A stretch of 45,539 nucleotides of DNA. Origin: an uncultured Anaerobiospirillum sp. GTDB lineage: Bacteria > Pseudomonadota > Gammaproteobacteria > Enterobacterales > Succinivibrionaceae. The position numbers and the translations under genes are program-made. This document shows positions 1-12,947 of this stretch, piece after piece; within the stretch, counting starts at the first letter, position 1, and the number at the start of each line of letters is the position of its first letter. The stretch lies in contig CALXNP010000009.1 in NCBI GenBank assembly GCA_944389785.1, positions 1 through 45,539 of the forward strand, in the 5' to 3' direction. A model generated the notes under the pieces. It was not told where the DNA came from and made no database searches. It worked only from the letters and a program-made list of their open reading frames with translations.

Positions 1-48
1 GATGGTAGTGCAACGTACGATTGTGTGAGAGTAGGTCATCATCAGGCT
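1..48 (+). rRNA. rrf: 5S rRNA, 3' end only (partial at window edge)
   Basis: The first 48 bases match the 3' end of gammaproteobacterial 5S rRNA: they open with GATGGTAGTG, have GAGAGTAGGTCATC in the middle and end with CAGGCT. The rest of the gene and probably the 16S/23S genes lie left of the window. A strong terminator follows at once, so this is the end of an rRNA operon read rightward. Confidence 0.9.
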
Positions 49-63
49 AATAATTTAAGCAAG

Positions 64-94
64 ACCACCTAAATTAATTTTTAGGTGGTTTTTT
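64..94 (+). terminator. Rho-independent terminator of the rRNA operon
   Basis: Perfect 10-bp stem ACCACCTAAA (64-73) / TTTAGGTGGT (80-89) with loop TTAATT, followed by a T run. It lies 16 bases after the 5S end. Confidence 0.9.
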
Positions 95-207: not shown

Positions 208-2388
208 TTAATCTTTAATTTGTTTATAAAGTTTATCTAAGAAAGCATAAGCTCCATCAATATCTAAATTTCTAGTAGCATAAGCAAGTTCTTGTAAATG
301 TCTGCATAAGAATTTATCGTTTTTATCCATCTCAAGGCTTTTGACTTTTTTTAGTAATTGAGTAACATCAATTTTAGGTTTATTTAAAATTTCAATTAAA
401 GTATATCTAAGTGTAGCTAACGAGCAATATTCAATTACTATAATGCTGTCATATAAAGTACTTTTGATATTTTCATTTTTTAATAGTAAATAGATAGCTC
501 GTGTAGTCATATTAGACAACCAAGGTGTGATATAGAGATTTTCCATATAAACACAATAGTTATTAATATCAAGCTTTAACTCTTTAAAGCATTTTTGAGC
601 CTCACTAAAAATAAGCTTACTATGTTTACTAAAGTATAAAGGACATTGTGTACTTTGAGCATAGAGTTTATATACTTCTTGGGCAACTTTAGCGTGTAAT
701 TGTGTATAGTTAGCATTAACGTCAAGAGCTTTTGCTATACTTGCAGTAGGCTTTACAGCAATCAAGTTAGTTTTATCATTAATAAAGATAATTTTCCAAG
801 CTTGACCAGAAAGTAAGAATTTATCATCTGTTTCTAAAAAACGGCTAGCAGCTTTTGGAACTCTGCCTATAATTTTATTATTATATTCTACAATCATTTC
901 TTCTACAGTATCAAAAGAGGTATAGAAGCTATGATGGTTAATAAAACGATCTCCTTCATTAGCAATACAGAGTTTGCCATCCTGCATTTGCATAATTAAT
1001 CCATTATTCCCCATATCTTGTAATAAGGTAATAAAGATTTCTTTTGTAATATTATTAAAAGGACCACTTTTACATAATAAGTTATAGAGTGTTTTAGCAC
1101 TTACAGAACCATAAGAGGTTATAACTGAAAGGGTTTGCTGTAATAGGGTAGATAAATATAAATCTTGTTGATTAGTAGGCTCATTCCATTTTTTCAGTAA
1201 TAAATTAATCATGGCAGCACTAATGAAGCTGCTTAAGGCTAATTTAGTTAGCAATGGATCTTGATTACTGGTTGCAAAAATTCTAAGTTTAGCCTGTCCA
1301 TCTCGTCTACCTGATCTACCTAATCTTTGTCTTAAAGAAGCAACAGAAGTGGTATAGTCAATTTGACCTATAGTATCAACATCAGCAATATCAATACCTA
1401 ACTCTAAAGTTGAAGTGCAAATTACAGTAGTAGGTAATTTATTTTGTTTTAGACGTAATTCAAGACTTTTTCTAAAATCTTTGGATAAAAGAGCATGATG
1501 GGGAAAGAACTCATTTGGTACATTATTAATTTCACATAACTTTGAGAGCATACTCGCTATCTTTTCACAATTTTCACGCGAATTAGCAAAGATAAGATTA
1601 GTTTTGCCTCGACATAGTTTAAAGATATCTGCTACTATTTCACTATAATCTTTACTGGTATTTTCTTTAAGATATTCAGTGTGATAACTTTTTACTTGTA
1701 CTGCTAGACTTGAATGTCCTGAGCTAGTTTTTAAGATAGTGGTACCAATATTACAGATATTTACGGGACGTAAATATCTGCTAATGTCTATTTCATTATT
1801 AAATGTAGCTGAAAGAGCAATTCTAATAACACTTTTTCTAATTAAATTTTCAATACGATGTAATTGTGATAATAACTGAATACCTCTATTAGTACCAATA
1901 AAAGCATGAAACTCATCAATAATAATATATTGAAGATTTTTTAAAGCTGTTGCTAGCCATGTTCTTTTATTAATGAGTAAAGCTTCTAAAGATTCAGGAG
2001 TTATTAGGATAATACCACTTGGATTTTTTATTTGTTTTTGTTTACTGCTTGCATTTACATCACCATGCCATGGGGTGACATTTATTTTAAGTTTTTGACA
2101 AATTTCTTGCAAACGTGCAGTTTGATCATCAATTAAAGCTTTAAGAGGGCTTATTGATAAGATCAAAATGCCTTCTTGTGGATTTTGTTTAATTTTAGTA
2201 ATAGCAGGTAAAAATGCAGCTTCTGTTTTTCCACTGGCAGTACCTGCTGCAATTATGACATCTTGCTTTTGCTCAAGTATAGGAGCAATAGCTAATTTTT
2301 GAATTTCTTTTAAATCTTGCCAACCTCTTAGATGTATATACTTTTGTATATCTACATCTAAAAGTGAGTAAGGATCTTTTGTGGCCAT
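208..2388 (-). CDS. DEAD/DEAH-box helicase, Lhr/BrxHI-like
   Basis: Superfamily 2 helicase of 726 aa. Visible motifs in order are a Walker A variant AAGTASGKT (47-55), ITPES (129-133), DEFH (158-161), SAT (193-195), and motif VI QRLGRSGRR (354-362). The DEFH box and the long C-terminal part (about 390-726) resemble Lhr-like helicases, including BrxHI of type 2 BREX phage defence. The start is 2 bases past the stop of the upstream ATPase gene and has no clear ribosome binding site, which implies translational coupling and joint function. The role is probably ATP-driven nucleic-acid unwinding within a defence or DNA-metabolism module; the substrate is unknown. No BREX methylase, PglZ or BrxC homologue is in the window. 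The helicase assignment is firm; the BREX link is inference from the pairing. Confidence 0.8.
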   Translation of the reverse strand: MATKDPYSLLDVDIQKYIHLRGWQDLKEIQKLAIAPILEQKQDVIIAAGTASGKTEAAFLPAITKIKQNPQEGILILSISPLKALIDDQTARLQEICQKLKINVTPWHGDVNASSKQKQIKNPSGIILITPESLEALLINKRTWLATALKNLQYIIIDEFHAFIGTNRGIQLLSQLHRIENLIRKSVIRIALSATFNNEIDISRYLRPVNICNIGTTILKTSSGHSSLAVQVKSYHTEYLKENTSKDYSEIVADIFKLCRGKTNLIFANSRENCEKIASMLSKLCEINNVPNEFFPHHALLSKDFRKSLELRLKQNKLPTTVICTSTLELGIDIADVDTIGQIDYTTSVASLRQRLGRSGRRDGQAKLRIFATSNQDPLLTKLALSSFISAAMINLLLKKWNEPTNQQDLYLSTLLQQTLSVITSYGSVSAKTLYNLLCKSGPFNNITKEIFITLLQDMGNNGLIMQMQDGKLCIANEGDRFINHHSFYTSFDTVEEMIVEYNNKIIGRVPKAASRFLETDDKFLLSGQAWKIIFINDKTNLIAVKPTASIAKALDVNANYTQLHAKVAQEVYKLYAQSTQCPLYFSKHSKLIFSEAQKCFKELKLDINNYCVYMENLYITPWLSNMTTRAIYLLLKNENIKSTLYDSIIVIEYCSLATLRYTLIEILNKPKIDVTQLLKKVKSLEMDKNDKFLCRHLQELAYATRNLDIDGAYAFLDKLYKQIKD

Positions 2389-2390
2389 AA

Positions 2391-3710
2391 TTATAAAGAA
2401 AAATTAACTAAGTCATCATCGTCATCTTCGTTTTCAGAATTTTGACTTTTGATGCTGACAATATCATCATCTGAATCTTGTGTAATCTTAATATTAGATA
2501 ATAAGCTTTGCCAACTAATATCTTTGTTTTGCTCGAGTACAGATAAAAAGTCTACAAAGGCTTTAATAGTATTACGTGGAGTTTTAAAGTAAGCATCACC
2601 TATATGTGATGAGCAATGAGTTAAAAATGCATGTAAAGCTTCATCATCTACTATGTACTTGCTTTTATCACCATTAGCAAAGACATTTCGTATATTGCAC
2701 AATAGTACAAATAGCTCCTCTGGTGAAAGGTTTTCTAGCATAAGTACAGGGCCTTTATAATCTACTACATTTGCAATTTTAGCATAAGTATTTTGAGCAA
2801 GACGTGAGTGCAAAGCTTCATAGCTATATAGACCACGACTTTGATCTTGCAAGAACTCAGGAGTTCCTCCAAGCAAGAAACCGACATGCTCAACACTACC
2901 TTGTAGACAATCATTTAGTATACGTAAAATTTGCTCATAGTTAGCAGAGCGTGATTTTTGATTTGGCAATTTATATAAATTAACCATTTCATCTAAATTA
3001 ACTAATAGGCCTTTAAAGCCTGCTTGTACTATAAAGCGGGCTAATAGCTTAATTCTATCGTAGAAATTAGAATCATCAACAATAGTTCTTACATTAAGAT
3101 CAATTCTAGCTTGCTGCTTTGAGGTATATTCACCTCTTAAATATCTTATAACACAATTTTTTGTGTTTTCATCACCCTCTTGAAAGGCTTTATAATAAGT
3201 TTCAATCACAGAAGCAAAATCATAGCCACCAACAAGTTCAGATAAAGAATGTAATTGCATACGAATAACATCATTTACATCTTTATTTTGTTTATTTGCT
3301 AGGTTAATTTGCTCACTAATAAACTTTTCAACAATGGCACTCATTGCATTACCTTGCATATGAGCCCTTGTGGAAATGTTCTTAGCTAATTCTTGATATA
3401 AAGCACGAGCTTGACCTGCACTTGCATATAAGCGTCTATCAGGTGAGAGATCTGCATTAATTACTACTAAACCTTTTTCTAAAGCTATATAGCGAATTAA
3501 TTGCATGAAAAAGGATTTACCTGCACCATAATCACCTATAATTAATTTAAATGAGCTACCACCATGTGCTATTAAATCAATTTCTTCAATTAAAGCTTTA
3601 ACCTCATTAGCACGTCCTACTTGAATGTGCTCAAGACCAATACGTGGTGTTACACCAGCACGCAATGATTGAATAATAGCAGTTCTTTCGCGTGGTTTGA
3701 TTGATGCCAT
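2391..3710 (-). CDS. BrxD-like P-loop ATPase (DUF2791 family)
   Basis: AAA-type ATPase of 439 aa when started at the ATG at 3710, which has AAAGGAA seven bases upstream. A longer reading from 3743 lacks such a site. Walker A is GDYGAGKS (about 59-66), Walker B is LLVNLDEM (DE about 240-241), and a sensor-like GGTPEF follows (about 281-286). The opening VGR...E segment, the Walker boxes and the GTPEF box fit the BREX BrxD / DUF2791 family. The tail is very acidic (DDDDD near the C terminus). In type 2 BREX, brxD precedes brxHI, the same order as here. As I recall, similar ATPase-helicase pairs also occur beside TerB-domain genes. No third partner is visible here: the 5S gene and an ABC exporter flank the pair. 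Confidence 0.75.
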   Translation of the reverse strand: MASIKPRERTAIIQSLRAGVTPRIGLEHIQVGRANEVKALIEEIDLIAHGGSSFKLIIGDYGAGKSFFMQLIRYIALEKGLVVINADLSPDRRLYASAGQARALYQELAKNISTRAHMQGNAMSAIVEKFISEQINLANKQNKDVNDVIRMQLHSLSELVGGYDFASVIETYYKAFQEGDENTKNCVIRYLRGEYTSKQQARIDLNVRTIVDDSNFYDRIKLLARFIVQAGFKGLLVNLDEMVNLYKLPNQKSRSANYEQILRILNDCLQGSVEHVGFLLGGTPEFLQDQSRGLYSYEALHSRLAQNTYAKIANVVDYKGPVLMLENLSPEELFVLLCNIRNVFANGDKSKYIVDDEALHAFLTHCSSHIGDAYFKTPRNTIKAFVDFLSVLEQNKDISWQSLLSNIKITQDSDDDIVSIKSQNSENEDDDDDLVNFSL

Positions 3711-3745
3711 AGTATTTCCTTTTATTAATTCTAGTTTTTTCATAA

Positions 3746-3779
3746 ATTATACTAAATACTAAAGCTTTTGTTTTAGTAT
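3746..3779 (-). promoter_or_regulatory. Promoter/operator-like region of the BrxD-helicase pair
   Basis: On the minus strand a TATAAT box (plus-strand 3746-3751) lies upstream of the ATPase start. Just upstream of it is a perfect inverted repeat, ATACTAAA (3756-3763) / TTTAGTAT (3772-3779), with an 8-base gap. The repeat would sit between -10 and -35, as an operator does. The -35 match is poor. Confidence 0.4.
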
Positions 3780-3814: not shown

Positions 3815-4894
3815 TTACTTTAATCTATGCCTAAAAAAGTATGCACACATAGGTAAGGTTACACTAGCATAAAGTATTAAGATTAATATATAAGGAAATA
3901 GGTATAAGAGATCTTTACCTTCAAGATAGATTGCTTGTATACATACAATACCATAGTATAAAGGATTGATGTAAACAATAGGTAAAAGCCAATTAGGTAT
4001 AGCTTCAATAGGAGTAATTAAAGATGATAATACAATACAAGGTAAAATTAAGATAAAAGCAAAAACAATAGATTGTTGTGTGCTTTGGGTTAGTGTTGAG
4101 ATGCTAAGACCAATACCTACAAGAGAAATAGAAAAGATAAGAATACATAAAAATAAATTAATAAAACTACCTATAAAAGGTATATGAAAATAAAAAACAC
4201 AGATTGCAAATAAAGATAAAGATTGCATTAAAGAAACAAATACAGGTGCAGCTGCTTTTCCTATAAGTAAGATTATAGTTGGACAAGGCGTCATTAACAT
4301 CATATCAAAGGTTTTATTTTCTCGCTCACGACTAATACATAAACTTGAGAGTAATAAAACTTGTATCATAGATAAAGCTAAGATCATACCTGATAAAATA
4401 CTGTGACGTGTAATAATATTTTCATTAAAAACAAAACGAGTATTAATTGTATTTAGAGTATGTAGATGTTTTTGATTAAATAAATTTACAAATTCACTTA
4501 AGTAAGATATAGCACTGCTAGCTGAAGCTGTATTTTTAGCATCACTTATAACCTCAATACTATAAGTATCAGTAAAATCTTTATTAATGTAGATAGCAAT
4601 TAAAGCTCGCTCTTGTTCAAGGCTATCACTTAAACATTGAGTATTTAAACATTTATCAACTAATCTAAAGTAGTTATTAGCTATTAACTCTTGTTCAAAA
4701 TCAAAAGCAAGTTTGCTGTTAGCTTGATTTAAAATACTAAAAGGTACATTATTTAAGTTAAAGCTTGCGGCATATCCAAAAACAAGTGCTTGAACTACAA
4801 TTGGTATAATCAAAATTTTTCTAGTGCCACTATCCATAAGCATAAGCAGCAACTCTTTTTTTAGTAAGGCTAATATTTGTCTTAAATATATCAT
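3815..4894 (-). CDS. ybhR: ABC-2 type exporter permease, YbhR-like
   Basis: Inner-membrane permease of 359 aa. It has one N-terminal membrane segment (about 27-47), a periplasmic domain of about 115 residues, then five hydrophobic segments in the C-terminal half with the usual RERENKTFDMMLMTP-type cytoplasmic loop near 190-203. It is the last gene of a four-gene exporter operon. Its ATG overlaps the stop of the preceding permease by one base (TAATG), so the two are co-translated and probably form a heterodimer. Length and order match E. coli YbhR (about 368 aa). The exported substrate is not evident; YbhGFSR relatives handle drugs or cations. The CecR-type regulator known for the E. coli operon is not present nearby. 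Confidence 0.75.
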   Translation of the reverse strand: MIYLRQILALLKKELLLMLMDSGTRKILIIPIVVQALVFGYAASFNLNNVPFSILNQANSKLAFDFEQELIANNYFRLVDKCLNTQCLSDSLEQERALIAIYINKDFTDTYSIEVISDAKNTASASSAISYLSEFVNLFNQKHLHTLNTINTRFVFNENIITRHSILSGMILALSMIQVLLLSSLCISRERENKTFDMMLMTPCPTIILLIGKAAAPVFVSLMQSLSLFAICVFYFHIPFIGSFINLFLCILIFSISLVGIGLSISTLTQSTQQSIVFAFILILPCIVLSSLITPIEAIPNWLLPIVYINPLYYGIVCIQAIYLEGKDLLYLFPYILILILYASVTLPMCAYFFRHRLK

Positions 4895-5958
4895 TAGTGA
4901 AGATCCTTATGTAATTGTCTATTACATATAGCTAAAAAGATAGCACTAACTATAAGTAAGATAAAATCATTAAATAAAATAGTTAAATAGTTAGCATCAG
5001 ATAAAAAACACATTTTAATAGCACTTACAGCATAACGTGGTGGTATTAAATAAGATAGGTAATAAATAGGGCTAGCTGCTGCCTTTAAATCAAAAATAGC
5101 ACCTGACAGCAATAAAGATGGAAGCAGTGAAATGATAATAGCATATTCACTAGCTAAAAATTGATTTTTAACTATAACTGAAATTAGTAGGCCTAAGCAA
5201 TTGGCCATAAAAACATAAATAATTAGGCTAATAATAAAAATTAAAATTGAACCTCTAAAAGGTAATTCAAATAAAATTAGAGCTATTAAGATACATAATA
5301 ATGAACCTAAAAATGAAATGATAAAATAAGGTATAAGCTTAGCTATGATGATATCACTAGCTTTAAGGTTAGCACTTTTTAAAAATAAAATAGTATTTCT
5401 ATCATACTCTCTTGCTATAAGTAAACTTGACATAAAAGTACTAATTAAAGTGATAATACCAACAAGCTGTCCTGGAATTAAAAAGTACGCAGATAAATTG
5501 GCTTCATTATAGCGATTATGTACAACTATATTGATAGCTTGTGTATTATTTAACTTAGCATAATACAAATTTAAAGCTGTTTTAATATAGTTTTCAATAA
5601 TAAAGCCTTTTTGTGAGCTTGCAGCATTGATATAGATTAAATGCCTATTGTGCTCATCTATAAATATTACAGCTGCAACAAGATCTTGATTAAAGGCACT
5701 TTGAGCTTGAGAGTATGGGTTTATTTGTGTAATTTCAAAATATTCACTTCCTTGTAATTGATAGTACAATTGTGAACAATTGCTGTCATTTTGTTTGCAG
5801 CTTAGAGCTATTTTAATATTATTAATATCTAAATTAAGACCATAGCCATAGATAAAAATTAGAATTAAAGGCAAGATAAAAGCTATAATTAAAATAGACC
5901 TATCTTGTTTGATGTGTTCTAATTCTTTTTTGATTAAGGCTTTAATGATCTTAGACAT
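4894..5958 (-). CDS. ybhS: ABC-2 type exporter permease, YbhS-like
   Basis: Second permease of the exporter, 354 aa. The topology is the same as its neighbour: an N-terminal hydrophobic helix (about 23-43), a periplasmic domain, and a C-terminal membrane block with the motif REYDRNTILFLKSANL (about 183-198). It starts with ATG behind AAGGAG, and that site overlaps the stop of the ATPase gene, ten bases away. Together with the YbhR-like partner it should form the transmembrane channel powered by the twin ATPase downstream of the membrane-fusion gene. The family is clear; the substrate is unknown. Confidence 0.75.
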   Translation of the reverse strand: MSKIIKALIKKELEHIKQDRSILIIAFILPLILIFIYGYGLNLDINNIKIALSCKQNDSNCSQLYYQLQGSEYFEITQINPYSQAQSAFNQDLVAAVIFIDEHNRHLIYINAASSQKGFIIENYIKTALNLYYAKLNNTQAINIVVHNRYNEANLSAYFLIPGQLVGIITLISTFMSSLLIAREYDRNTILFLKSANLKASDIIIAKLIPYFIISFLGSLLCILIALILFELPFRGSILIFIISLIIYVFMANCLGLLISVIVKNQFLASEYAIIISLLPSLLLSGAIFDLKAAASPIYYLSYLIPPRYAVSAIKMCFLSDANYLTILFNDFILLIVSAIFLAICNRQLHKDLH

Positions 5959-5968
5959 AGCTATCTCC

Positions 5969-7672
5969 TTAACTGCAAGAGTTTAAAAAGAGCTCATGTA
6001 CACTTATTCTTTGTTTTTTATCATTAAGACAAATATCATCAGGGCGGCCTAAACAAATAATTTTACCTTTAGCTTGAATTAAAAAGCGATCACAAAACTC
6101 AGCTTCTTCTAAAAAGTGAGTAGTAACAATGATAGTAACACCATTTTGCTTTAATAAATTCAAAATTAAAAAGAATTTACGTCTTGCTATAATATCGGCT
6201 CCTGAGGTAGCTTCATCTAAAAATAGAATTTTAGGTTCATGCAGTAAAGCTACAGTCATTGATAATTCTCTTTGTACACCAAAAGGTAATTCTTTAGCAG
6301 CTACTTGCATGTAATCTTTTAAATCAAAGATATTTAATAAAGTATCAAGACGTTTAGCTAATTGCTTATCAGATAAACCATAGCTTTTTGCAAAGTAAAC
6401 TATATTTTGATAGCAGCTAAGATCATTATATAAAGAAAATTTTTGTGAAACATAACCAATTTGTGAGCGCAGTTTAGCTTTTGCTTTAGCTAAATCTTGA
6501 TGCATAATTAGAATTTGTCCATAACTTTTATCTAATAATGCACACATCATTCTAAAAGTTGTAGTTTTTCCAGCTCCATTAGGACCTAATAAACCAAAGA
6601 TCTCTCCTTTTTTTACAGTAAAAGTAGAGCTATCCACTGCTACAAAGTTGTTAAAAACTTTTTTAACTTCATTTAGACTAATAATATCTTCAGTTTGGAA
6701 CTCATTATTTAAAACTTGATCTGCATTTTGTATATTTTGATATTTTTCATAAATTAAAAAATCTTTTTGTTTCAATGTTAATAAATATAGATCATCAAGT
6801 TTGGCCTCACGTTTTAATAAAATAAATTCATAAGAACATATTTCTTGTAAAAATTTACTAAAATCAGCAGCTGTTACTTGTTTTTTTAAGACTATCTGCA
6901 ACATACCTAAGCTTAAGGATAAATCACATAAATATTTTTCAAAATTACATTTGAGTAATTGATGATATATATCAAGATAGTGTGAGGATTTAACGTAGTA
7001 GCACAAGTTTTGTATTTGCTCTATATCTGCTTTAGTAAATTGTAAACATTTATTGTTGCTTAATACTAAGCATACATCAGCCTCTTGAGCCTCTTCTAAA
7101 TAGGCTGTTGTATAAATACAATAATTGTTATGACTTAGATATTCATTTACAATATCCCAAAGAGCATTGCGTGAAATAGGATCAACACCAACAGTAGGTT
7201 CATCTAAAATTAAAATTTTAGGATCTTTTACAATAGTACATAAAAGTGCAAGCTTTTGACGCATACCTCCTGAGAGTTGATTCACTCTGTAATTAGCAAA
7301 ATTTTTAAGCTCAAGATAAGAAAGCATTTCATATAGTTGTGTTTGGCTTTTGTTATCTTGATTAAATAAGCTATTGGCTAAGGATAAATTATCTATAACA
7401 CTAAGATCTTCATATAAGCAAGAATCTTGGGGCATATAGGATAGCTGTGGTCTAATTTGCTTTAATTCTTGATTGAAAAACTTTATTGAACCACTATTTG
7501 GTTTGAGCAATGCAAATAATAATTTTAGTAAAGTAGATTTACCTATACCATCAGGTCCTACTATACTAATAGTATGTATATTATCTAAAAACTCTAGTGT
7601 TAATTCTTTAAAAATAAATGAGTTTTTAGTATAGGCAAAATTTAAGTTAGTAATACTTAAAAAGCTATTCAT
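5969..7672 (-). CDS. ybhF: Twin-domain ABC exporter ATPase, YbhF-like
   Basis: Two fused nucleotide-binding domains in 567 aa. NBD1 (about 1-225) has Walker A GPDGIGKST, MPQ Q-loop, signature LSGGMRQ, and Walker B LILDEPT, but Ala in place of the H-loop His (TTAYLEEAQ). NBD2 (about 330-560) has GPNGAGKTT, a degenerate signature (LPFGVQREL), Walker B LFLDEAT and an intact TTHFLEEAE H-loop. The two sites are therefore complementary and asymmetric, a trait I associate with the YbhF/RbbA family. The chosen ATG (7672) overlaps the end of the fusion-protein gene (ATGAATAG). A GTG at 7684 would add four residues. It powers export through the two permeases encoded next. Confidence 0.8.
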   Translation of the reverse strand: MNSFLSITNLNFAYTKNSFIFKELTLEFLDNIHTISIVGPDGIGKSTLLKLLFALLKPNSGSIKFFNQELKQIRPQLSYMPQDSCLYEDLSVIDNLSLANSLFNQDNKSQTQLYEMLSYLELKNFANYRVNQLSGGMRQKLALLCTIVKDPKILILDEPTVGVDPISRNALWDIVNEYLSHNNYCIYTTAYLEEAQEADVCLVLSNNKCLQFTKADIEQIQNLCYYVKSSHYLDIYHQLLKCNFEKYLCDLSLSLGMLQIVLKKQVTAADFSKFLQEICSYEFILLKREAKLDDLYLLTLKQKDFLIYEKYQNIQNADQVLNNEFQTEDIISLNEVKKVFNNFVAVDSSTFTVKKGEIFGLLGPNGAGKTTTFRMMCALLDKSYGQILIMHQDLAKAKAKLRSQIGYVSQKFSLYNDLSCYQNIVYFAKSYGLSDKQLAKRLDTLLNIFDLKDYMQVAAKELPFGVQRELSMTVALLHEPKILFLDEATSGADIIARRKFFLILNLLKQNGVTIIVTTHFLEEAEFCDRFLIQAKGKIICLGRPDDICLNDKKQRISVHELFLNSCS

Positions 7673-8633
7673 CAAAATATACACTCACTGATTGCCCATC
7701 ACGCAAATTATTATTTGCGGTAGTTAATAGTAAATGAACTTCATAGACTAAAAATCCACGCAATTCATTAGTAATGACATTTTTAGGGGTAAAAATAGCA
7801 GTATTTGAAATATAGCTAATTTTAGCTTCAAAATGATCTTGTGCTTGGTTAACTATTATAAAATTTGTGTCTTTATCAATTAAAGCAAGTTGACTCTCAC
7901 TAAAGTAGGCAATAATTTTTTTTGAAGCAGTGTCACTTAATTCAAGCACTGTATCTTGAATATTAGCCATATCACCTACATTTTTATTTTTTGAGCGCAC
8001 AAAGCCGTCAAAAGGAGCTCTAATTATAGATTGTTCTTGTAATTGATAATCTAGATAATCAATTTGAGCAAGACATTGCTCATATTTATATTTAGCCGCA
8101 TCAATTTGTTCGGCTCTGTAACCCTTTTGCATTTCATTACAAGAAGCTTTTGCAGCTAAAAGCTGATTGTAGCTCATAGCTTGATTAAGTACAGCTTCAT
8201 CATATTCTTGATTAGAAATTTGTTTGGCTTTATATAGTTTTTCTAGTCGTTTTAAAGTAATAGTAGCAAGCTCATAAGAATTGCTTAGAGCTTTATAGTT
8301 ATAACAGCTTTTATCTATTTGCTCTTGAGTATAGCCTGTTTGCATCTCTTGTAATGATGCTTGTAAGGCTTGGCAAGTTGCTATTTGTTGGCGTTTTTGA
8401 ATAAGTAGGTCATCACTATTTAGTTTTGCTAGAATTGTCCCTTTTTTTACTTCTTGACCTGACTGCACATAGATATCACTAATTTGACCTGAGCGTAAAA
8501 AAGTTAGACTGCTAGTATCAATATCTACAAAACCATAAGCAATATTGTCTTGTTGGCTAGATTTAAAGAATAAAAATATACCAAAGCTTATACCTAATAT
8601 AGCAATAAGACTAAATATGATTTTAGGTTTCAT
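7665..8633 (-). CDS. ybhG: HlyD-family membrane fusion protein, YbhG-like
   Basis: Periplasmic adaptor of 322 aa for the ABC exporter. It has one N-terminal membrane anchor (about 5-23), a half lipoyl domain (SGQISDIYVQSGQEVKKG), a long alpha-hairpin (about 75-200) and a C-terminal barrel (APFDGFVRSKNKNVGD). The hairpin carries two similar segments, LQEMQTGYTQEQID and CNEMQKGYRAEQID, typical of YbhG/YhiI adaptors. It is the first gene of the operon, started by ATG behind AGGTG, and overlaps the ATPase gene by eight bases. It probably links the inner-membrane pump to an outer-membrane channel; no TolC-type gene lies in the window. Confidence 0.78.
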   Translation of the reverse strand: MKPKIIFSLIAILGISFGIFLFFKSSQQDNIAYGFVDIDTSSLTFLRSGQISDIYVQSGQEVKKGTILAKLNSDDLLIQKRQQIATCQALQASLQEMQTGYTQEQIDKSCYNYKALSNSYELATITLKRLEKLYKAKQISNQEYDEAVLNQAMSYNQLLAAKASCNEMQKGYRAEQIDAAKYKYEQCLAQIDYLDYQLQEQSIIRAPFDGFVRSKNKNVGDMANIQDTVLELSDTASKKIIAYFSESQLALIDKDTNFIIVNQAQDHFEAKISYISNTAIFTPKNVITNELRGFLVYEVHLLLTTANNNLRDGQSVSVYFDE

Positions 8634-8775: not shown

Positions 8776-9648
8776 TTATTTTTTAATGCCACAAACTAAA
8801 AGCCATCCATCTTGTACTTTAGTATCATAAATATCAAAATCTTTTGAGTAGGCTTGAATAATTTCATCTCGTTGTTCTTCAATCAAGCCACTTAGAGCAA
8901 GTTTGCCTCCTGAAACTACTTTTGAAGCTATAACATTTTCAAGTTCACACAATGGTCCTGCTAAAATATTTGCAACAAGTACGGGGCAAGCCTTTAAATC
9001 AGCACTATTTTTTGTTAAAAATAGCTTAGTATCAACACCATTGCGCTTAGCATTATCAAGACTAGCACTTAAAGCTTGATCATCGATATCTATAGCATAA
9101 ACTTGTTTTGCACCTAAGATTAAAGCTGCAATACCTAAAATACCAGAACCACAACCATAATCTACTACTTCTTTGTCTTTAAGATCTAGGCTATCTAAAA
9201 ATTCAAGACATAAAGCAGTAGTAGGGTGTGTTCCTGTACCAAAAGCAAGACCAGGATCTAACATAACTACAGCTTTTGATTTATCTTCTATAGTATAGGT
9301 ACTTGGACAAATGCACAAACGCTTTCCAAAATTCATAGGTTTAAATTGATCCATCCAAGCTCTAATCCAGTCTTTATCCTCAAGGCTAGAGTCGCTAATT
9401 GGAGTATTATCTCCAACTAAGGCAATTAAAGCATCTTTTATAGAAGTAATATCAACATTATTATCAAATAAACCTGTAACTACAGTTTGTGGCCATAGCC
9501 TAACTTCTCCTGGAAGAGGTTCTAAAATAGGTGAATCTTTAGCATCCTGATAGGTGACAGCCATAGCACCTAAGGCACTTAATGTATCTGATACTTCATC
9601 AGCTTTTTGTGATGGTACAATTAATTTAATTTCAATATAATCTGACAT
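8776..9648 (-). CDS. prmA: Ribosomal protein L11 methyltransferase PrmA
   Basis: SAM-dependent enzyme of 290 aa that trimethylates lysines and the N terminus of ribosomal protein L11 in the cytoplasm. The N-terminal L11-binding domain is followed by the linker-active-site segment DPGLAFGTGTHPTT (about 131-144), SAM motif VVDYGCGSGILG (about 160-171) and the NILAGPL motif. The length matches the family (about 293 aa). It starts with ATG behind AAGG, 39 bases after the stop of the upstream PTS-like membrane gene, so the two are probably co-transcribed. In E. coli prmA follows panF instead. Confidence 0.95.
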   Translation of the reverse strand: MSDYIEIKLIVPSQKADEVSDTLSALGAMAVTYQDAKDSPILEPLPGEVRLWPQTVVTGLFDNNVDITSIKDALIALVGDNTPISDSSLEDKDWIRAWMDQFKPMNFGKRLCICPSTYTIEDKSKAVVMLDPGLAFGTGTHPTTALCLEFLDSLDLKDKEVVDYGCGSGILGIAALILGAKQVYAIDIDDQALSASLDNAKRNGVDTKLFLTKNSADLKACPVLVANILAGPLCELENVIASKVVSGGKLALSGLIEEQRDEIIQAYSKDFDIYDTKVQDGWLLVCGIKK

Positions 9649-9687: not shown

Positions 9688-11082
9688 TTATTGTTTAGGG
9701 ATAATAAAAGCAGGTGCAAGGCTTATTTCTTGAAAGCTTTGACCTAAAAAATCACCAAGTAATTTGATTAATTTATCATGTAAAATTGTATTATTTAGTC
9801 CAAAATTACATCTATAAGCTTTTTTAACCTTATCAAAACCTGCTTTTTTATAGCGACACATACTAGCAAGCGTTTGATAAGAAACTTCTTGTTGATTGTA
9901 AACATGGATAAATAAATAATTATCTTGTAACTTAATAAATTTAATATTATCAATACCGCCTAAGGCTCGTAAGAGCACAATAACCTGTAAATCAGGATCT
10001 AAATTCTTATCATAATTAAAACGTTTTCTTTTTCTTTTATCTCTTTGATATTCAAGATTAGTAATACTGGTATTAAAAAAGATTAGCAGCAATGTGATAG
10101 GTAAAATTATAGCTAACATAGCAAAGATCTTAAGCTCTGTTACATTATAAAAAATATTAGTATAACTAAGATTAATATCAGGCCTATAAAAGTTAGTACT
10201 ACGTATTAGTGAACTAAAATTACAATGTAAGGAAATAAAAAATAACATTATTTCACTTAAAATAATGCTAAAAAATGTTCCTGGAAAAAAAATTAAAAGA
10301 AAGATTAAGATAAAAGAAAGACTAGTACCAATAGAGGCACATAATATACAGCAAGCTCCCAAGAATATTAAAAAGATACGTAAAGTGTTTTGTGTGAATA
10401 AAGATTTCATAAAAATAGCTACAGGTAATACTACAAAATTTGTAATCAAAATAGTATTATGAAAAGCTGTGTTAATAGAGGGTTTAAAATCACTATTGAT
10501 AAGCATAGTTAGTTCATTATGACACCCAAACGCTTGTAAGACAGTAAATAAAGGTACAATAATAAAGCTATAATTAGTGTTGATAATATTAGAATTGAAG
10601 ATAGCTTTAATAAATATATTAATTTGTGCTAATACAGAATAAATTAATATAGCGATAAGAATAGGTACAAATAGTGCTAAACACCATCTTATTAGTGTAC
10701 CGCTAACTTTATTGTTTTCAGAGCTTTTTGATAAAAATACTAATACATTGCTAGCTGCGCTAATAGTGCAAATTATCGTATAATCAATATCATTATATGT
10801 AAAATGATGCATAATATAGACTAAAATTAAGTAAGCACAAGCTGTTGTAGTTAATTGCTGTGATCTGTTTTTTATAGGCACTATTAAAGTTATTAACAAA
10901 GCTAACACTCCAGGTAAGAGTGTATTTGTCACATGCAGAATCATTTGCCTAGTATTAGCATCTAAAAAAGGAGTATTTTTGCGATCGAAAAACCAAATCA
11001 CTACTGCAAGTAAGAGTAATGGTGCTAATAGTATCAAGATTCTTTGTTGGTAATAGTGATTTTGTATTCTTTTCAAGATCAT
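9688..11082 (-). CDS. Degenerate PTS EIIC-EIIB-like membrane protein lacking the active cysteine
   Basis: A 464-aa protein with about ten hydrophobic segments (from about 15 to 338), a basic linker (DKRKRKR near 348-354) and a soluble C-terminal domain (about 366-446). The C-terminal domain follows the glucose-family EIIB pattern: LRALGGIDNI (371-380) matches the GGKENI turn, and NFGLNN with an amphipathic end helix (about 426-442) matches the end of EIIB. Where the phosphorylated Cys of the CITRLR motif should be, the sequence reads KLQDNYLF, with Gln386 at the Cys position. The membrane part has no GITEP sugar motif. It may be a sensor or a non-phosphorylating carrier rather than an active PTS permease. 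ATG is preceded closely by GAGG; a TTG two codons on is better spaced. The homology is from motif reading only. Confidence 0.5.
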   Translation of the reverse strand: MILKRIQNHYYQQRILILLAPLLLLAVVIWFFDRKNTPFLDANTRQMILHVTNTLLPGVLALLITLIVPIKNRSQQLTTTACAYLILVYIMHHFTYNDIDYTIICTISAASNVLVFLSKSSENNKVSGTLIRWCLALFVPILIAILIYSVLAQINIFIKAIFNSNIINTNYSFIIVPLFTVLQAFGCHNELTMLINSDFKPSINTAFHNTILITNFVVLPVAIFMKSLFTQNTLRIFLIFLGACCILCASIGTSLSFILIFLLIFFPGTFFSIILSEIMLFFISLHCNFSSLIRSTNFYRPDINLSYTNIFYNVTELKIFAMLAIILPITLLLIFFNTSITNLEYQRDKRKRKRFNYDKNLDPDLQVIVLLRALGGIDNIKFIKLQDNYLFIHVYNQQEVSYQTLASMCRYKKAGFDKVKKAYRCNFGLNNTILHDKLIKLLGDFLGQSFQEISLAPAFIIPKQ

Positions 11083-11243: not shown

Positions 11244-12947
11244 GTGAAGCAGGTGAAAATAGTAGCACGTGACATAATAAATAGTAATTGCTTAGATACA
11301 GTTGTCTCTAATAGCATAATGCGCAATGTTTTATTAAGTAGAGGCATTGATGATATTAAGGATCTTGATTTAAGCTTAAAACACCTACTTCATTACAAGG
11401 ATCTAAAAGATATAGATAAAGCTGCTGTAATTTTAGCAGATGCTATCATTAATAATCGTTCTATCGCTATAAGTGGTGATTATGATGTTGATGGCATGAC
11501 TGGCACAGCTTTAGGAGTCTTGATTTTAGATGATTTTGGAGCTAAAAATGTTCATTATCATATGCCATCGCGTTATGATGATGGCTATGGTCTATCTACT
11601 AAGGCTGTAGAAAGTTTATATGCTAAGGGTACTAATTTAATTATTACTGTAGATAATGGTATTAGTGCTTATGAATCTATAGCTTTAGCAAAAGAACTTG
11701 GAATGCAGGTGATTATTACCGATCATCATGAATGTCAAGCTACCTTGCCACAAGCTGATGCTATAGTTAATCCAAAGCAAAAAGACTGTAAATTTAGCTC
11801 AAAAAATTTATCAGGTGTAGGTGTCTTATTTTATTTATTTATAGCAACACGCCAGGTTTTAATAGATAAGGGTTATTTTAAAGAAATTAAGCCTAATTTA
11901 TCTATGTATTTGGATTTAGTGGCTTTAGGTACTGTAGGTGATTTAGTTCCACTTGATGCAAATAATCGCCGCATTGTAAAAGCAGGTTTGTCCTATATGC
12001 AAAAAGGTTTTGCTCAAGTTGGACTTAAAGCTTTAGCTAAGATTTGTCGCAGTAGTTTAGATAGAGTAAGTGTTAGTACTTTTGCTTTTGAGTTTTGTCC
12101 AAGATTAAATGCTGCTACTCGTTTAAATATTGATACTAATTATGCTTTATTACTATTGCTTGAGAAAAATTATGTTAAAGCTATAGAGTATGCAAGACAG
12201 CTTGATTTTTGCAATAAAAGACGTAATGACTATGAAAAGGTTATGTATAACGATGCTATGTCAATGCTTGCTGAATATGAAAAAGATAATAGTGTAGTTT
12301 TATATAAAGATAGTTTTTTAGAAGGTGTTTGTGGCTTAATTGCCAATCGTATTAAGGACAATACAAATAAACCAAGTTTTATTTTTGCCAAACATCATGA
12401 GTTATTAACTGGATCTGGTCGTTCTATTAACAAAGTGCCTTTAGCCAAAATTTTACAAGAAATAGATACAGAACATCCTAGTTTACTTGAGCGTTTTGGT
12501 GGTCATAATATGGCAGCAGGTTTATCTATACAGCCCCAAAAGTTAGAGGTGTTTTCTCAAATTTTTGACGATAAAGTTAAAGCTTATTTAATTCAGGATA
12601 TAGGTGAAGATATAGTTTATACAGATGGACATTTAGCTATTAAGGATATAAATTTAAATTTTGCTAGGTTGATAAGCAGCTATGGACCTTATGGTCAAGG
12701 CTTTGAAGAACCTTGTTTTGATGGAATATTTGAAGTTGAAGATGCATCAATTGTTTCAGATAGGCATATGCGTTATAAGCTTAAAAATAATGAAGGCAGT
12801 TTTGATTGTATCTTATTTAGAGCTACTAAAGAGCAAATGAATATTCATAGTGGTCAAAATGTACACATTGTTTATACTTTAAGTGTATCTCATTATATGG
12901 AGCAAGATAGGTTAAGTGTAAAGGTTTTACATTTAATTAAAGCTTAG
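11244..12947 (+). CDS. recJ: Single-stranded-DNA exonuclease RecJ
   Basis: 5'-3' ssDNA exonuclease acting in RecF-pathway recombination and mismatch repair. The 567-aa protein has the DHH-family motifs DYDVDGMTGTA (about 79-89), the DHH box in ITDHHEC, SGVGVLF, and the DHHA1 region with GRSINKVPL and RFGGHNMAAG (about 415-425), then the OB domain. Length matches E. coli RecJ (577 aa). The start is GTG at 11244 (a second GTG lies three codons on); neither has a strong site. A terminator shared with the convergent glucokinase gene follows. It is transcribed divergently from the PTS-like gene. Confidence 0.95.
   Translation: MKQVKIVARDIINSNCLDTVVSNSIMRNVLLSRGIDDIKDLDLSLKHLLHYKDLKDIDKAAVILADAIINNRSIAISGDYDVDGMTGTALGVLILDDFGAKNVHYHMPSRYDDGYGLSTKAVESLYAKGTNLIITVDNGISAYESIALAKELGMQVIITDHHECQATLPQADAIVNPKQKDCKFSSKNLSGVGVLFYLFIATRQVLIDKGYFKEIKPNLSMYLDLVALGTVGDLVPLDANNRRIVKAGLSYMQKGFAQVGLKALAKICRSSLDRVSVSTFAFEFCPRLNAATRLNIDTNYALLLLLEKNYVKAIEYARQLDFCNKRRNDYEKVMYNDAMSMLAEYEKDNSVVLYKDSFLEGVCGLIANRIKDNTNKPSFIFAKHHELLTGSGRSINKVPLAKILQEIDTEHPSLLERFGGHNMAAGLSIQPQKLEVFSQIFDDKVKAYLIQDIGEDIVYTDGHLAIKDINLNFARLISSYGPYGQGFEEPCFDGIFEVEDASIVSDRHMRYKLKNNEGSFDCILFRATKEQMNIHSGQNVHIVYTLSVSHYMEQDRLSVKVLHLIKA

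What the first reader, a model, noticed from the sequence alone, without database searches (positions are those of the whole stretch)
208..3779. Stand-alone BrxD-like ATPase plus BrxHI/Lhr-like helicase beside an rRNA operon
The sequence shows a DUF2791/BrxD-type ATPase (Walker A, Walker B, GGTPEF) followed two bases later by a DEFH-box helicase. In type 2 BREX the same two genes occur in the same order. Here there is no methylase, PglZ, BrxC or TerB gene: the 5S gene is on one side and an ABC exporter on the other. The pair may be a minimal two-gene defence or DNA-processing system, or the remnant of a larger one. This is the best candidate for an undescribed system in the window.
Basis: partly seen in the sequence, partly recalled or inferred. 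Interest (0 to 1): 0.7.

Follow-up and report, generated by a model that had tools for sequence, protein, structure and literature searches.

The report
Split, inherited Shango ATPase-helicase pair
The two genes are the ATPase and helicase of Shango, a known bacterial anti-phage system, but in this branch of gut bacteria they are fixed, single-copy chromosomal genes passed down from parent to offspring, and the third Shango gene appears to have moved elsewhere in the genome, which suggests that a mobile defence system was turned into permanent cell equipment.

Summary
The gene pair is real: helicase 208-2388(-), ATPase 2391-3743(-) (start probably 3710), two bases apart. It is not BREX. The best profiles are SngC (1e-211) and SngB (4e-171), full length, far above BrxHI (1e-109) and BrxD (9e-48). 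The BrxD equivalog cut-off is missed (155 of 350 bits), and the genome has no PglZ and no second BrxC/BrxD-type ATPase. So this is sngBC of Shango.

The pair is not a minimal system or a remnant. It is single-copy core DNA of one Succinivibrionaceae clade: SngB is in 49/57 species of the family, and in 36/36 well-assembled genomes outside two sister genera. It usually lies in one neighbourhood (recJ-membrane gene-prmA-sngBC), forms one clade, and is under strong purifying selection. Elsewhere Shango is sporadic (2 of about 360 sampled species of the same order), and sngA lies directly upstream in 66/66 evaluable loci; in this clade it never does.

A TerB-C protein homologous to the C-terminal half of SngA lies elsewhere (own genome: between tig and xseA) and has the same clade distribution. 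Best reading: a split, vertically inherited Shango. That the unlinked protein works with SngBC, and whether the job is still phage defence, are inferred.

The parts
2391..3743 (-). sngB: PF10923 AAA+-type ATPase of Shango (start probably 3710, 439 aa)
   Evidence: PADLOC SngB 3.6e-171 over 13-449; BrxD 8.9e-48; BREX_BrxD 155 bits against a cut-off of 350; start judged from relatives and AAGGAAA
208..2388 (-). sngC: Lhr/MrfA-like SF2 helicase of Shango, 726 aa
   Evidence: PADLOC SngC 1.3e-211 over 6-718; BrxHI 1.3e-109; predicted fold (pLDDT 88) nearest to Mycobacterium Lhr 5v9x, then MrfA 6znp
1..47 (+). 3' end of a 5S rRNA gene, convergent with sngC; same layout in relative G012
   Evidence: alignment with three 5S genes; rRNA beside sngC in G012
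61..92 (+). intrinsic terminator-like hairpin after the rRNA operon
   Evidence: 2 found, 1.5 expected by chance, so its position matters more than the score
3815..8633 (-). ABC-2 exporter with HlyD subunit that separates sngB from prmA in this genome
   Evidence: in most relatives prmA is next to or near sngB
8776..9648 (-). prmA, conserved upstream neighbour of sngB across the clade
9688..11082 (-). unnamed membrane protein of the same conserved block
   Evidence: no Pfam match
11244..12947 (+). recJ, end of the conserved block; recJ-membrane-prmA also exists without sngBC in the sister genus

Best explanation
The pair is sngB-sngC of a Shango system that entered the chromosome once, in the ancestor of the main Succinivibrionaceae clade, downstream of prmA, and has been inherited vertically since. 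Its third component is probably present in trans: a fast-evolving protein of about 1,000-2,200 aa whose C-terminal half is homologous to that of SngA (TerB/TerB-C), usually coded next to xseA or tig-clpPX. Proposed working: SngB (AAA+/ORC-like ATPase) assembles on DNA and, through the TerB-C protein, loads or gates SngC, an Lhr/MrfA-type helicase that unwinds aberrant or foreign DNA. Shown: identity of the parts, intact motifs, vertical inheritance, absence of linked sngA, co-distribution of the unlinked protein. Inferred: that the three act together, and how. I lean slightly (about 55:45) to a standing housekeeping or genome-surveillance role over a dedicated anti-phage role.
For: SngB/SngC are the best profiles by large margins; canonical Shango SngB scores equally low on the BrxD model (146 bits). 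SngB in 49/57 species of the family, nearly always single copy, in 36/36 well-assembled species outside genera g12/g13; only 2 of about 360 sampled species of the rest of the order. sngC follows sngB in the family loci examined. recJ-membrane-prmA-sngB-sngC block across most genera, and the same block without sngBC in g12. Family SngBs form one clade (SH-aLRT 99); carriers are a clade in the RpoB tree with g12+g13 as sister (100). dN/dS 0.02-0.06 for the closest pairs, like prmA. sngA directly upstream in 66/66 evaluable loci of other bacteria and 0/12 here; 0/45 in whole-genome loci. The unlinked TerB-C protein matches SngA colinearly over 361 columns (hhalign 99.3%, E 1e-20), occurs in 47/57 species with the same clade absences (both/SngB only/SngA-like only/neither = 46/3/1/7), and sits at conserved loci beside xseA or tig-clpPX.
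Against: No functional data. The co-distribution rests on one phylogenetic event, so it is weak proof of a link. The unlinked protein has no detectable TerB_N domain and only about 13% identity to SngA; it could be an unrelated TerB-C protein. Rate covariation is positive among the three (rho 0.35-0.54), but a control pair scores higher (rpoB-membrane gene 0.62), so it is not decisive. Synonymous sites are near saturation in many pairs.
Confidence: 0.72

Rival explanations
1. A fully active anti-phage Shango that happens to be fixed: same job as mobile Shango, kept because phage pressure on gut Succinivibrionaceae is constant; the split of sngA only changes regulation.
For: Shango blocks phages in Pseudomonas and, modestly, in E. 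coli (PMC10250203); catalytic motifs are all kept; the TerB-C protein evolves fast, as expected of a sensor in an arms race (about 20% identity or less across genera; higher dN/dS).
Against: Defence genes are normally patchy, horizontally moved and often lost; here there is no loss in 36 good genomes and no sign of movement among lineages.
Confidence: 0.35
2. SngBC works as a two-protein DNA-repair machine on its own (Lhr-like helicase plus loader), and the TerB-C protein next to xseA is unrelated.
For: SngC's nearest solved folds are the DNA-repair helicases Lhr and MrfA; the TerB-C protein shares only its C-terminal half with SngA; three SngB carriers lack a detectable TerB-C protein (G038, G039, G041).
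Against: Those three assemblies are only 69-89% complete; in all 36 well-assembled carriers both are present, and both are absent from the same sister clade.
Confidence: 0.2
3. One reading: a minimal two-gene BREX-derived system (BrxD plus BrxHI).
For: PF10923 membership and a BrxHI-related helicase; same gene order as in type 2 BREX (own knowledge).
Against: SngB/SngC profiles win by hundreds of bits; BrxD equivalog cut-off missed; no PglZ and no other BrxC/BrxD ATPase in the genome; PglZ over the cut-off in only 3 of 57 species of the family.
Confidence: 0.02
4. A decaying remnant of a mobile Shango that lost sngA.
For: No sngA next to the pair.
Against: Present in about 50 species with intact motifs, strong purifying selection and conserved position.
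Confidence: 0.03

Closest known systems
Shango (SngA TerB-domain protein, SngB ATPase, SngC helicase)
   Same: SngB and SngC full length, same order and strand, all motifs; a TerB-C protein exists in the genome
   Different: sngA is never adjacent; the TerB-C protein is unlinked, larger, and lacks a detectable TerB_N; the locus is a vertically inherited core locus instead of a mobile island gene
BREX type 2 BrxD-BrxHI
   Same: related ATPase family PF10923, related helicase, same gene order
   Different: far lower profile scores; no PglZ and no second PF10923 ATPase in the genome; methylase and PglY were not searched genome-wide
Lhr and MrfA DNA-repair helicases
   Same: overall predicted fold of SngC, TM 0.70 and 0.60 by query length
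   Different: sequence falls far below the Lhr-type equivalog cut-offs (223 of 850 bits); I know of no PF10923 partner ATPase in those systems
Hachiman HamAB
   Same: helicase-based DNA surveillance idea (PMC12278908)
   Different: HamB is a Ski2-type helicase with a HamA nuclease; no HamA-like nuclease was seen here. That paper puts SngC with BrxHI, DruE and DpdJ in a possibly distinct helicase clade

Membership tests
Shango | SngB ATPase, full-length profile match as best hit | tested here: met
   3.6e-171, next best BrxD 8.9e-48
Shango | SngC helicase, full-length profile match, directly downstream of sngB | tested here: met
   1.3e-211, two bases downstream
Shango | sngA (TerB_N-TerB-TerB_C) directly upstream of sngB | tested here: not met
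   absent in the window and in 45/45 family loci with room; present in 66/66 evaluable loci of other bacteria
Shango | SngA-type protein somewhere in the genome | tested here: inconclusive
   C-terminal half homologous (hhalign 99.3%), N-terminal half not recognisable
Shango | reduces phage plating | not testable with these tools
   needs a plaque assay
BREX (type 2 or other) | BrxD at equivalog level | tested here: not met
   155 bits, cut-off 350
BREX (type 2 or other) | PglZ in the genome | tested here: not met
   no match in own genome
BREX (type 2 or other) | BrxC ATPase in the genome | tested here: not met
   only one PF10923 (BrxC/BrxD) protein in the genome, the one in the window; PglY was not searched on its own
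BREX (type 2 or other) | PglX-type methylase | not tested
   not searched genome-wide; none seen beside the pair
Lhr helicase | equivalog-level match | tested here: not met
   best Lhr-type model 223 bits, cut-off 850; fold similar

The most novel reading that the evidence does not exclude
A mobile anti-phage system (Shango) was domesticated: in one clade of gut gammaproteobacteria its ATPase and helicase became clade-wide core genome-maintenance genes, while its third gene moved next to the exonuclease VII gene xseA, was rebuilt, and works in trans.
Probability: 0.4. Interest if true: 0.75.

Novelty: new variant of a known kind. Interest (0 to 1): 0.57.

Why it matters
Defence systems are described as mobile, patchy and quickly lost. 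A Shango pair that is single-copy, syntenic and lost in none of 36 good genomes of a clade gives a natural test of what the ATPase and helicase do without a linked SngA, and of whether a defence system can become housekeeping equipment. It also shows that annotation by adjacency will miss or misname such split systems. The mechanism of Shango is not settled in the papers I could read, and named strains of Succinivibrio, Succinatimonas and Anaerobiospirillum carry this form.

Tried and rejected
BREX membership: rejected by profile scores and by absent PglZ and BrxC/BrxD ATPases. Remnant: rejected by conservation. Coincidental capture beside rRNA: rejected, since the rRNA neighbour recurs in a relative (G012) and the prmA block is conserved. 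The two PF05099 TerB hits on contigs C63 and C5 are other proteins that the SngA profile does not match. Rate covariation gave positive but non-decisive values, since a control pair scored highest. The SngB fold search gave only generic AAA+/STAND/ORC matches (best E 1e-4, TM about 0.3-0.4). ApsAB (a two-gene antiplasmid system) was checked as a possible relative: it is an Argonaute-like protein plus a nuclease-helicase, unrelated, though Shango can sit in the same islands. The original Shango paper by Millman et al. is not held.

Full report
Observation. The helicase is 208-2388(-), 726 aa. The ATPase is 2391-3743(-), 450 aa; ATG 3710 behind AAGGAAA is the likelier start, because relatives begin there. 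Two bases separate the genes. Walker A GDYGAGKS, Walker B LVNLDEM, GGTPEF and DEFH are present and largely conserved across relatives. Bases 1-47 are the end of a 5S gene. Long intact ORFs with these scores are not chance.

What the proteins are. PADLOC gives SngC 1.3e-211 against BrxHI 1.3e-109, and SngB 3.6e-171 against BrxD 8.9e-48. NCBIfam's BrxD equivalog is missed by far (155 of 350 bits), just as for a canonical Shango SngB (146 bits). PF10923 is met, but that family covers BrxC, BrxD and SngB alike. No PglZ and no second PF10923 protein exist in the genome. The pair is therefore sngBC of Shango, the three-gene TerB/ATPase/helicase system shown to act against phages in P. aeruginosa and, modestly, in E. 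coli (PMC10250203).

Distribution. The window's family is Succinivibrionaceae (named relatives: Succinivibrio, Succinatimonas, Anaerobiospirillum). SngB is found in 49 of 57 species, nearly always once; among genomes at least 90% complete it is in 36 of 41, and all five misses belong to genera g12 and g13. In a sample of 395 species of the order, only two outside the family carry it at E <= 1e-60. sngC follows sngB in the family loci examined; one secondary, divergent SngB copy in G056 lacks it.

Position. Clustering of neighbours shows one chromosomal block, recJ - membrane gene - prmA - sngB - sngC, in most genera. In the window an ABC exporter (3815-8633) lies between sngB and prmA. The sister genus g12 has the recJ/membrane/prmA block without sngBC, so sngBC was added beside prmA, or lost there. 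In G012 sngC converges on a 5S/23S rRNA operon as in the window; several other contigs end just past sngC, which would fit rRNA repeats but was not shown.

History. In an RpoB tree the carriers form one clade, with g12+g13 as its sister (SH-aLRT 100); one row, G021, has a very long branch there. In a tree of 118 SngBs the family's proteins are one clade (SH-aLRT 99) beside mobile proteobacterial SngBs, and its main groups repeat those of RpoB. One acquisition followed by vertical descent explains this best; acquisition earlier and loss in g12/g13 is not excluded. dN/dS of the closest pairs is 0.025-0.053 for sngB and 0.022-0.059 for sngC, like prmA (0.037-0.049), with synonymous sites often near saturation; one more distant pair, G034/G048, gives higher values for every gene.

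The missing sngA. In 66 of 66 evaluable loci of other bacteria sngA lies directly upstream of sngB (two more are cut by contig ends); in 12 of 12 named Succinivibrionaceae loci it does not (one of these has no upstream DNA). A profile built from these SngAs finds nothing in 45 family loci with at least 2.5 kb upstream, and finds both positive controls. Elsewhere in the window's genome, between tig and xseA (contig C61; L005:4040-7105), lies a 1021-aa protein whose only PADLOC match is SngA (5.7e-7) and whose only Pfam match is TerB_C at the cut-off. Its family aligns colinearly with the C-terminal half of SngA (361 columns, probability 99.3%, E 1e-20). TerB_N, present in canonical SngA, is not detectable. 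With a profile of its own it is found in 47 of 57 species, in 36 of 36 good carriers, and in none of g12/g13. The discordant species are three incomplete assemblies with SngB only, and G009 with the TerB-C protein only; G009 does hold sngC at a contig edge. It lies beside xseA or tig-clpPX in most genera, and about 0.9-1.4 Mb from sngBC in two nearly closed genomes.

Mechanism. SngC's model (pLDDT 88) is closest to Lhr (5v9x) and MrfA (6znp), both DNA-repair helicases. SngB's model (pLDDT 79) gives only generic AAA+/STAND/ORC matches. My proposal is that SngB assembles on DNA and, with the TerB-C protein, loads or gates the SngC helicase. The parts and their inheritance are shown; the joint action is inferred. 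Rate covariation is in the right direction but a control pair scored higher, so I give it no weight. The retention pattern makes a standing genome-surveillance role slightly likelier than pure phage defence.

Novelty. Shango is known. No paper held mentions it together with Succinivibrionaceae. A clade-fixed, split Shango is new to me; I rate it a new variant of a known kind.

Noticed in passing
RpoB of the family, loci L315-L376: RpoB of the sngBC-carrying clade is about 1,480-1,520 aa, against about 1,345-1,385 aa in g12/g13 and 1,342-1,379 aa in outgroups; a likely insertion of about 110-150 residues shared by the same clade.
   Followed up: no
L142:4344-7802 and relatives (genus g2, cluster 9): A 760-1,150 aa ORF sits between prmA and sngB only in genus g2 and shows weak methyltransferase matches below the Pfam cut-offs.
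   Followed up: partly
G005, G006, G003, G004, G007, G008 TerB-C proteins (L254, L274, L261, L270, L271, L276): In genus g2 the SngA-like protein is about 1,740-2,200 aa, nearly twice the length in other genera.
   Followed up: no
L154:7968-9293 (G056): A second, divergent SngB-like protein (42% identity to the window's) without sngC beside it, in a species that also has the core copy; partly masked region.
   Followed up: partly
G033, G047, G027 (L390-L392): PglZ over the cut-off in three of 57 species, as expected of sporadic BREX-like systems and in contrast to the fixed sngBC.
   Followed up: no
window 3815-8633: ABC-2 exporter (two permeases, a double ATPase, an HlyD-type subunit) placed between prmA and sngB in this genome only among those compared.
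   Followed up: partly
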